Shown here piece by piece: positions 59,861 through 64,000 of a stretch of DNA of 64,000 bases. The notes beneath the pieces are model-generated. The model had not been told where the DNA came from. It made no database searches and saw only the letters and a program-made list of their open reading frames with translations. Position numbers and translations under genes: made by a program. Origin of the DNA: Chloroflexus sp. Y-396-1 (GTDB lineage: Bacteria; Chloroflexota; Chloroflexia; Chloroflexales; Chloroflexaceae); assembly GCF_000516515.1 (NCBI RefSeq), contig NZ_KI911784.1, positions 2,388,881 through 2,452,880 on the forward strand, given 5' to 3'. Numbering within the stretch: position 1 is the first letter of the stretch; each line of letters opens with the position of its first letter.

Positions 59861-61720
59861 CTAAAGACGATAGATTGCTACCGTCTGCTGCAATTTCTGG
59901 GCCAGCGTATGCAAATCCTGCGCAGCCCGTTCGGCCTGACGAGTCGACGCTAATGCTTGAGTAGTTGCCTGCTGGATATTTGCCATCGCCTGACCAATCT
60001 GTTCCATGCCCACCATCTGCTGCTGGGCTGCCGCTGCAATTTGAATATTCGCCTGTGCCCCATTTTCGACCTCGCTAGCAATACGGTGAATAATCCGTCC
60101 GGCCTGGGCTGCGAGGGCCACACCCTGTTCAACACCTTTGGCTCCCTCTTCGGTCACCATCACTGCTGCATTTGTCGCTTTTTGGATTTCGGCTAGAATA
60201 TCACGCACTTGTTGCGCTGCCGCCTTCGAGCGTTCAGCCAATTCACGCACATGTTGGGCTACCACTGCAAAACTCTTCCCCTGTTCACCAGCACGGGCTG
60301 CTTCGATTGCCGCATTCAGAGCTAGCAGATTACTCTGATCGGCTAATTCGCTTACCGTCGTCATAATGACGCCAATAGCCTGCGTTTGTTCCGCCAGGCC
60401 AAGTATCGTTTGCGCAATCGTTTCAACCCGACTACGGATCTGGTTCATGCCATTAATAGTATCTTCCACGGCTTGCGCCCCTTGTTTGGCTATCTCCAGC
60501 GCATTTTGGCTATCGTTTGCAACCTGAGTCGCTTGTTTTGCAGTTTGCACGGAAATGGCCTTCACTTCATCAATGGTGGTAGCCGTTTGCGTTAATGCAG
60601 CCGACTGTTCGGCTGCGGATGAGGCTTGTTGGGTGGTAGCAGCCAGAATTTCAGCCGCAGCAGTGGAAATATCCGCATTGGCACGCTGCACCTGGGCAGC
60701 AATCGTCCGTAGCCCATCAACCATCGCATTGAGTTGTTTACCGAGCAGCGAAAGATCATCGCCGTTGTTAGATACTTGTAGTCGTACAGTGAGATTTCCA
60801 CGGGCAATTTCTTCGGCGAACACACTGTATTCTCGTACCATTTGTTCGAGATATTCCTTAGCTACTTTGGTAGCATTTGCAGCACGTAATTCTTCATTTG
60901 CCCGTCGTTGTTCTTCAAGTTGCCGACGAATGGTTTCGGACATTTGACGAAACGCGGTTGCCAGTTGCCCAACCTCATCGCGCCCTTCTGGAAGATCATA
61001 GTGTTCATTGATCCGTCCAGTAGCCATTTGGGTGGAAGCATTGGTTACTATTTTGAGACGACGATCAATACTGCTGGCGATTAAAAAGGTTAGTAGTGTG
61101 CCAGCAATAACGGTGATGGCCGGACCTCCAATTAAAACAATCTGTAGGCTTTGCAGCGCCTGTAACGAAACCTCCGAGACGTTCTTAAGCAACTGTTCCT
61201 CCGCATTTACTATTTGGCTCATCACTTGACTAATTCTAGTGAATCTATCATTTCCAGCCCGGCTGGCAACTACCTGAATGATTTGATCAAGCGACGCTTC
61301 ATTGCGATTCACGGCGTAACGCATATTGATCAAAGGCTCAGCAACCTGCGATTTCCAAGCCTCAAGTTCACGATCTACTTCCTCAAGCATCACATACATA
61401 CTAGAATCGGACGGAATCTGCCGTTTCAATTCTCCAAAGACAGCGAGATAGAGTTGTTTTCCACTATCATACTTCTCTAGGAAGACGGGATCACCGGTTA
61501 TCAGGAAACCGCGTTCGCCTGACTCCATCATGTACAAGCTGGTTTCAAGCTGGCGAGTATGAACAATTATGTTGTAAGCATTTTGTACCTCTCGTTCGCG
61601 TTCGTTTGCCCCGAGCAGCGCCTGGTAAGAAATAACCGAAACTGTAACAACACAAAGAAAGACGAGGAAGACCAGGAGGAGAATTTTATTGCGGAGACTT
61701 ATATCATTAAGGAATGACAT
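59861..61720 (-). CDS. Methyl-accepting chemotaxis protein (CHASE3-HAMP-MA)
   Basis: This 619-residue receptor has transmembrane helix 1 (about 10-30), an external CHASE3 domain with [19 protein letters not shown], transmembrane helix 2 (about 190-212), a HAMP domain, an additional helical HAMP-like segment ([20 protein letters not shown]), and the signalling domain with the hairpin tip [20 protein letters not shown] then [20 protein letters not shown]. No CheR-tethering pentapeptide is at the C-terminus. It is the only receptor in the operon, between cheY and cheA. Confidence 0.94.
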
Positions 61721-61740
61721 ACCCGCATCCTTTCTTCGTT

Positions 61741-62124
61741 CTATTCCTGACTGAATAAGGCCAGGACTTGCGACACAACATTAAGGAGTTCAAAGGGAGC
61801 ATCATCTTTGAACAGGTAATCGTCAGCACCGAGCTCGAGAGCACGTTGAACACTGTCTATCCGATCGCGATGAGTGAGCATCACGACGGGAATGTGTTTA
61901 GTATGGAGATCACGCTTCAAACGACACAATACCTGAAATCCATCAAGCCCAGGTAAGTCAATATCGAGTAGGATCAAACGTGGCGGTTCGAGACTGGCAG
62001 TACGCCATCCGGCTATACCATCAGTCGCGACCTGCACGCGATAACCGGCCCGTTCGAGCATCAGGCGAAAGTTGAGTGCCTGGCTAGGACTATCCTCTAC
62101 CAGAAGAATATCAATATCGTTCAT
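61741..62124 (-). CDS. Response regulator CheY-like
   Basis: This single-domain receiver has 127 residues. The acidic pair is in [11 protein letters not shown], the phosphorylation site is Asp54 in [14 protein letters not shown], and Thr and Lys of the switch are in VVMLTHRD and DYLFKDDAP. It follows cheW after three bases and precedes the receptor gene. It could carry the output to a gliding or pilus machine, or act as a phosphate sink for CheA. Confidence 0.93.
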
Positions 62125-62127
62125 TTT

Positions 62128-62670
62128 CTACTCCTTTGCTTTGTCCACATCAATGGTCAGGGCCGGATCGTGGAGTAATGCCGCTGGATCGAGATGAATA
62201 GCCAGCGTTTCATCCATCCCACGCACCCAATTAACACTGTTTCCAGCCAACATTGCTGGTGTGGGTTGAAGGAAACCGCTATACCAACGTACATCAAGGA
62301 CTTGATCAACGAGCAAGGCAGCCTCGATAGTACCAGCACTGATTATGAGCAGGTGCATTGTTTCACGTGGAGGAGAGAACGAGAGCCCCAAGAGTGGTCG
62401 CAGATCAATACACGTTAGTAAGCGTCCACGCACGTTAATGAGACCAAGAATAGCCGGGGGAACGCCAGGGAGTGATGCAACTGAGGTGAAACGAAGAACT
62501 TCTCGAGCCGTAGTTGCTGGAATGCTGTAGGTTTCATCACCAAGCGTAAAATGAAGGGTAAGTTCACCCTCAATGCTGCTGGCTGAATTCGGCACACTAG
62601 CTAACGCTTTGGCTCTTGCTTGAAGGATCTCGCGGGCAACGGGATCGGAGAAGAGGTTGTTGAGATCCAT
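62128..62670 (-). CDS. cheW: CheW-like coupling protein, first gene of operon
   Basis: This 180-residue protein has a ~40-residue N-terminal helix and a CheW domain: LTLHFTLGDETYSIPATTAR, EVLRFTSVASLPGVPPAILG and LINVRGRLLTCIDLRPLLGL, which contains the conserved NxRG. It has about 180 bases of AT-rich sequence upstream and no gene before it on the strand, so it probably opens the operon cheW-cheY-mcp-cheA-HATPase-cheW-cheB-cheR. The N-terminal extension is unusual and might localise the protein. Confidence 0.92.
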   Translation of the reverse strand: MDLNNLFSDPVAREILQARAKALASVPNSASSIEGELTLHFTLGDETYSIPATTAREVLRFTSVASLPGVPPAILGLINVRGRLLTCIDLRPLLGLSFSPPRETMHLLIISAGTIEAALLVDQVLDVRWYSGFLQPTPAMLAGNSVNWVRGMDETLAIHLDPAALLHDPALTIDVDKAKE

Positions 62671-62871: not shown

Positions 62872-63909
62872 CTATTGAACTATCAGACCACTACCACCGA
62901 TCACCTCACCGATCTCCCAGATTGGCTGCCCAACCGCAGCACATAGTGCCTGCAATACAGTAGCGGCTTGTGGTGGCGCAGCAATCAATAACCCACCAGA
63001 GGTTTGCGGGTCGGCCAGTAGCAGTTGATAGACAGGGGGAAGAGTGGGGGCGAAGGTGGTAAACGAAGCGGCAAATTCGAGATTACGCCGTAAACCACCG
63101 GGGATCATGCCGGCTTCGGCATAGGTAAGTACACCGGGGAGAACTGGTACGGCCCTAGCATCAATACGCAGAGATACATTACTCTGACGGGCAATCTCGC
63201 CAGCATGACCGAGCAGGCCGTAGCCGGTCACATCGGTAGCGGCGTGAATTTCAACCTGTTCCATTAGTTCGGCCATGCGCCGGTTGAGAGTTACCATACT
63301 CTCGATAGCCGTGTTGAGGTCAGCTTCGTTCACCGCATCGCGCTTAGCAGCAGTCGTAATGATGCCAGTACCAAGCGGCTTACTGAGGAACAATCGATCA
63401 CCGGGACGCGCCCCGGCTTTCGTAATAATCCGTTGTGGATCAATTAGCCCGGTTACACACAAACCATATTTTGGTTCACGGTCGGTCACCGTATGACCAC
63501 CAACCACGACCGCGCCAGCTTCGGTAGCTTTGTCGATACCGCCCTGCAGTATCGCCGAGATGATCGATTGATCGAGGTTATCGGGAAATGCAGCGATGGC
63601 GAGCGCAAGAATAGGCTTTCCTCCCATTGCGTACACATCGCTGAGTGCATTAGCCGCAGCGATAGCGCCGTAGGTGTATGGGTCATCGACAATCGGCGGG
63701 AAGAAGTCAACCGTTTGCACAAGCGCCGTGTCGTTATTCAGTTGGTAGACGGCAGCATCATCGCTTTCGGCCAAGCCGACTAACACCTGCGGGTGAGCAG
63801 GTGTGCGAAGCATAGCCAGCACTGAAGCAAGGGCACCCGGCCCCAACTTTGCTGCTCAGCCAGCGCAGGCTGCCAGGGTTGTCAATCGAATTTGTTCGCG
63901 CTTGTCCAT
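62872..63909 (-). CDS. selD: Selenide, water dikinase SelD (selenoprotein, in-frame UGA)
   Basis: SelD makes selenophosphate from selenide and ATP. From the ATG at 63909 (or one at 63918) the frame reads MDKREQIRLTTLAACAG, TGA at 63858-63856, then AAKLGPGALASVLAML, and continues to 62872, 345 residues counting the UGA. Cys-type SelDs have CAGCAAK at this place, so the UGA encodes the catalytic selenocysteine, codon 18. DDAAVYQL, QTVDFFPPIVDDP, AISDVYAMGG-like NALSDVYAMGGKP, GGHTVTD, ATDVTGYGLLGH and DPQTSGGLL complete the enzyme. A start at the later TTG would drop the active site. Confidence 0.93.
63827..63852 (-). promoter_or_regulatory. Candidate bacterial SECIS hairpin in selD
   Basis: Starting three bases after the UGA on the minus strand, GCAA...TTGC and GGG...CCC can pair around an 8-base loop (GCCGGGTG). 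Position and size fit a bacterial SECIS read by SelB, though the sequence of these elements is poorly conserved and pairing was judged by eye. Confidence 0.45.
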
Positions 63910-64000
63910 TGTTGACATTCCAGAAACAATTTATCCATCAGCGTACTTATTATAACCCAAACCAGCTCATTACGCCCTTACGCAACCCAGAATAGAGGGG

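What the first reader, a model, noticed from the sequence alone, without database searches (positions are those of the whole stretch)
63827..63918. SelD is itself a UGA-encoded selenoprotein
The conserved SelD N-terminus runs through an in-frame TGA: LTTLAACAG-TGA-AAKLGPGAL. Cys-containing homologues have Cys exactly there, and the frame has no other stop. A possible SECIS hairpin follows. Automatic annotation would start at a TTG four codons later and lose the catalytic residue. This implies that this Chloroflexus makes selenocysteine, so selA, selB and selC should exist elsewhere in the genome.
Basis: partly seen in the sequence, partly recalled or inferred. Interest (0 to 1): 0.8.

Follow-up and report, generated by a model that had tools for sequence, protein, structure and literature searches.

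The report
Selenocysteine-containing SelD in Chloroflexus
The gene for the enzyme that makes activated selenium for selenocysteine contains a UGA codon that is read as selenocysteine in its own active site; the reading is right, but this is the usual state of the gene in this bacterium's phylum and a well-known case elsewhere.

Summary
The minus-strand gene at 62872-63909 is selD. It is open for 345 residues except for one TGA (63858-63856) at residue 18, aligned with the N-terminal Cys of E. coli SelD. In 131 SelD sequences compared (this one included), that codon was TGA in 114, TGC in 10, TGT in 7 and never anything else. A hairpin directly after the UGA fits every constraint of the published bacterial SECIS model, but its folding energy is no better than chance and its covariation is modest. 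The genome also holds a second selenoprotein gene, an AhpC/TSA-type redox protein (FF-U-PHCAP), so SelD does not maintain the system for itself alone. One Chloroflexus genome without selB and selD has that redox protein with Cys, as expected. Sec-containing SelD is widely known and already reported in Chloroflexota. Ordinary, well supported, low novelty.

The parts
62872..63909 (-). selD, selenide water dikinase (selenophosphate synthetase), 345 aa read through one UGA, including the stop codon
   Evidence: translation; TIGR00476, 389 bits over a cut-off of 125; aligns over its length to E. coli SelD 3u0o and to 2yye
63856..63858 (-). UGA codon for selenocysteine 18, aligned with the N-terminal Cys of E. 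coli SelD (GAGC-GCK)
63827..63847 (-). putative bacterial SECIS hairpin: 5-bp upper stem GGGGC/GCCCU, loop CGGGU, extended by a weaker lower stem; 16 nt between UGA and loop
   Evidence: constraints from PMC13188914
63907..63909 (-). ATG start codon of selD
63844..63846 (-). TTG at which a caller that takes UGA as a stop begins the gene, losing Sec18 and the N-terminus
   Evidence: ORF 62872..63846, 324 aa

Best explanation
The gene encodes selenophosphate synthetase whose catalytic Cys-equivalent residue is selenocysteine, inserted at an in-frame UGA by the ordinary bacterial route. SelA converts seryl-tRNA-Sec to selenocysteyl-tRNA-Sec, using selenophosphate made by SelD itself. SelB carries that tRNA to the ribosome and binds the hairpin just after the UGA through its winged-helix domains, so that the UGA is read as Sec instead of a stop. 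The product supplies selenium for itself and for at least one other selenoprotein of the same genome. Shown by sequence: gene, UGA, conservation, complete machinery, second UGA gene. Inferred: actual insertion of Sec, SECIS function and catalytic role.
For: Single in-frame TGA in an otherwise intact SelD. Codon at this position TGA 114, TGC 10, TGT 7, other 0 in 131 sequences. selA 563 bits; selB 341 bits with SelB-wing_2 and SelB-wing_3; tRNA-Sec 70.8 bits with TCA anticodon. The hairpin fits all four constraints of the bSECIS model, with two pairs changed on both sides and a covariation score reached by 1 of 500 shuffles. A second UGA-containing gene is conserved in 13 other Chloroflexaceae genomes. 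Cys replaces the UGA of that gene in a relative without selB and selD.
Against: No protein evidence. The hairpin's folding energy is not better than dinucleotide shuffles (z -0.31; -0.26), and most of its stem lies in codons for a conserved Gly-Pro-Gly-Ala-Leu. The hairpin is not the predicted fold in all relatives. One same-genus genome (G083) has selB and a UGA redox gene but no SelD was found.
Confidence: 0.97

Rival explanations
1. The TGA is a sequencing error or a fresh mutation in a Cys codon.
For: TGA is one base from TGC and TGT, which some homologues have.
Against: The same codon is TGA in the four other same-genus genomes that have SelD and in most of the phylum; the full Sec machinery is present.
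Confidence: 0.01
2. The UGA is a real stop and the working protein starts at the internal TTG (63846) without the N-terminus.
For: A caller without Sec support gives this product.
Against: Seventeen codons before the TGA are conserved as protein, with 7 synonymous and 0 non-synonymous differences to L132; the lost residue is the Cys-equivalent of E. coli SelD.
Confidence: 0.015
3. The UGA is read through with another amino acid (near-cognate read-through, or UGA reassigned).
For: Sequence alone does not show which residue is inserted.
Against: UGA closes 7 of 22 long frames in the window, so it serves as a stop; homologues show only Cys codons besides TGA; a tRNA-Sec with anticodon TCA exists.
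Confidence: 0.005

Closest known systems
Sec-containing SelD (selenide, water dikinase) of bacteria, e.g. Haemophilus influenzae and Aquifex aeolicus (PMC1242214), Dehalogenimonas alkenigignens (PMC4918011)
   Same: Same family and an in-frame UGA, with Sec machinery in the genome; Dehalogenimonas is of the same phylum and its gene too is reported with a putative SECIS
   Different: Only species-level sequence differences; here selA, selB, selC and selD lie at four separate places of the chromosome
Cys-containing SelD such as E. coli SelD (3u0o)
   Same: Homology over the whole length
   Different: Cys in place of Sec at the aligned position

Membership tests
SelD, selenide water dikinase | Match to the SelD equivalog model over its length | tested here: met
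   TIGR00476, 389 bits against cut-off 125, model 1-310 of 311
SelD, selenide water dikinase | N-terminal Cys/Sec followed at +3 by a conserved Lys | tested here: met
   G-U-AAK here, G-C-GCK in E. coli; same pattern in the relatives aligned
SelD, selenide water dikinase | ATP- and selenide-dependent selenophosphate synthesis | not testable with these tools
   needs an enzyme assay
Bacterial selenoprotein gene | In-frame UGA aligned with Cys of homologues | tested here: met
   TGA 114, TGC 10, TGT 7, others 0
Bacterial selenoprotein gene | selA, selB and tRNA-Sec in the same genome | tested here: met
Bacterial selenoprotein gene | bSECIS model as given in PMC13188914: loop 3-9 nt, upper stem 4-16 bp, G in the first two loop positions, 16-37 nt from UGA, energy -7.5 kcal/mol or lower | tested here: met
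   loop 5 nt CGGGU, stem 5 bp, G at second loop position, 16 nt, -7.8 kcal/mol for the short hairpin
Bacterial selenoprotein gene | Hairpin more stable than chance and supported by covariation | tested here: inconclusive
   energy z -0.31; covariation score reached by 1 of 500 shuffles and 2 pairs with double changes, but coding constraint and relatedness confound
Bacterial selenoprotein gene | Selenium in the protein | not testable with these tools
   needs mass spectrometry or selenium labelling

The most novel reading that the evidence does not exclude
Within one genus the Sec trait is caught in several stages of loss: complete (this genome), SelD missing while selB and a UGA redox gene next to a Cys-coding copy remain (G083), and fully lost with only the Cys version left (G225). 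That would be a stepwise replacement of Sec by Cys through a tandem Cys copy.
Probability: 0.3. Interest if true: 0.4.

Novelty: new member of a known kind. Interest (0 to 1): 0.17.

Why it matters
It corrects the gene model: annotation that takes UGA as a stop would cut off the N-terminus with the active-site residue. It also confirms that this bacterium is a selenocysteine user with at least two selenoprotein genes and without a UGA in any of its six molybdopterin-oxidoreductase matches. Beyond that it adds one case to a well-known set.

Tried and rejected
Sequencing error, internal TTG start, and other read-through were considered and rejected as above. A SelD that serves only itself was considered (SelD as single selenoprotein is discussed in PMC1794560) and rejected after the UGA-containing AhpC/TSA-type gene was found. 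PF00384 (six matches in the own genome) and CMD (two) gave no UGA inside the match, and Rdx gave no match. Rfam found no family in the last 2 kb of the window.

Full report
Observation. The minus strand from 63909 to 62872 reads MDKREQIRLTTLAACAG-U-AAKLGPGAL... for 345 residues with exactly one internal stop, TGA at 63858-63856, residue 18, and ends in TAG. A caller that treats TGA as a stop starts at TTG 63846, four codons on, and gives 324 aa.

Identity. The read-through protein scores 389 bits to TIGR00476 SelD (cut-off 125) and aligns over its length with E. coli SelD 3u0o, where the Cys of GAGCGCK lies at U18, and with SelD 2yye. Pfam gives AIRS and AIRS_C.

Is the TGA selected? In 131 SelD sequences from Chloroflexota, Bacillota, Acidobacteriota and others, this one included, the codon is TGA in 114 (108 matched by the motif plus 6 read from the printed translations), TGC in 10 and TGT in 7, and never another codon. 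The 17 codons before the TGA evolve as protein: 7 synonymous and 0 non-synonymous differences to L132, of the same genus. Of 301 Chloroflexota genomes 242 have SelD, and most of the listed matches carry one TGA. TGA also closes 7 of 22 long frames of the window, so it remains a stop in general.

Machinery. The window lies in G000, one contig of 4,890,986 bases, 99.98% complete. selA: C1:1024584-1025924 (-), 563 bits. selB: C1:4130548-4132383 (-), 341 bits in all, with GTPase, SelB beta-barrel, SelB-wing_2 and SelB-wing_3 domains. tRNA-Sec: C1:2902841-2902933 (+), 70.8 bits, anticodon TCA.

SECIS. Shortly after the UGA lies GGGGC-CGGGU-GCCCU: a 5-bp stem, a 5-nt loop with G at its second position, 16 nt from the UGA to the loop, and -7.8 kcal/mol for the short hairpin. 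This meets each constraint of the bacterial model quoted in PMC13188914. In 20 Chloroflexia sequences the eight-pair helix has 84% of cells paired (43-63% for slid controls), two pairs with changes on both sides, and a covariation score reached by 1 of 500 shuffles. Against this, the energy is no better than shuffles (z -0.31) and the stem overlaps codons of a conserved GPGAL. The hairpin is therefore likely but not independently proven. The Cys-coding relative L140 has CAGGC in the loop position, without a G in the first two, which fits but is one case.

What else uses Sec. A second gene with a conserved UGA was found: an AhpC/TSA-type redox protein, C1:4386161-4386736 (-), motif RFF-U-PHCAPQLDALRE. 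It carries the UGA in 13 other Chloroflexaceae genomes. The genus member in which neither selD nor selB was found (G225) has FCPNC there instead. G218 has a Cys-SelD, selB and the UGA redox gene, as expected because Cys-SelD also makes selenophosphate. G083 has selB, a UGA redox gene and a Cys copy beside it, but no SelD was found; this is either an assembly gap or decay of the trait. None of the six PF00384 matches in the own genome contains a TGA, so no Sec formate dehydrogenase was seen.

Known background. Zhang et al. 2006 already list three selenoproteins of three families in Chloroflexi and call SelD and FdhA the most widespread selenoproteins (PMC1794560). SelD with an in-frame UGA and putative SECIS is reported in Dehalogenimonas alkenigignens (PMC4918011), and Sec and Cys forms of SelD are discussed at length in PMC4561486. 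From the contig length alone (5,258,541 bases) G115 is probably C. aurantiacus J-10-fl; that is from memory and not tested.

Verdict. A true, well-supported selenoprotein gene of a known kind; interest low.

Noticed in passing
L175 (G000:C1:4385000-4388000), gene at G000:C1:4386161-4386736 (-): Second selenoprotein gene of this genome: AhpC/TSA-type redox protein with FF-U-PHCAP, UGA conserved across Chloroflexaceae; only weak matches to NCBIfam models (SelL-related 37.5 bits against a cut-off of 120), so it may be an unnamed subfamily.
   Followed up: partly
L182 and L193 (G083:C29:81947-83164): Tandem UGA-coding and Cys-coding copies of that redox gene in a same-genus genome that has selB but no detectable selD.
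   Followed up: partly
L163:8962-14635 (G000:C1, around selA): selA is adjacent (4-base overlap) to a gene that looks like a MobA/MocA-type nucleotidyltransferase and lies about 1.6 kb from a molybdopterin oxidoreductase; a link to a selenium-dependent molybdenum cofactor was not tested.
   Followed up: no
L103 and L105: Cys-type SelD in open frames of 743-750 aa in two Chloroflexota genomes, suggesting a fusion protein.
   Followed up: no
59861-62670 (-): Genes that look like CheW, a response regulator and a methyl-accepting chemotaxis protein follow selD on the same strand.
   Followed up: no
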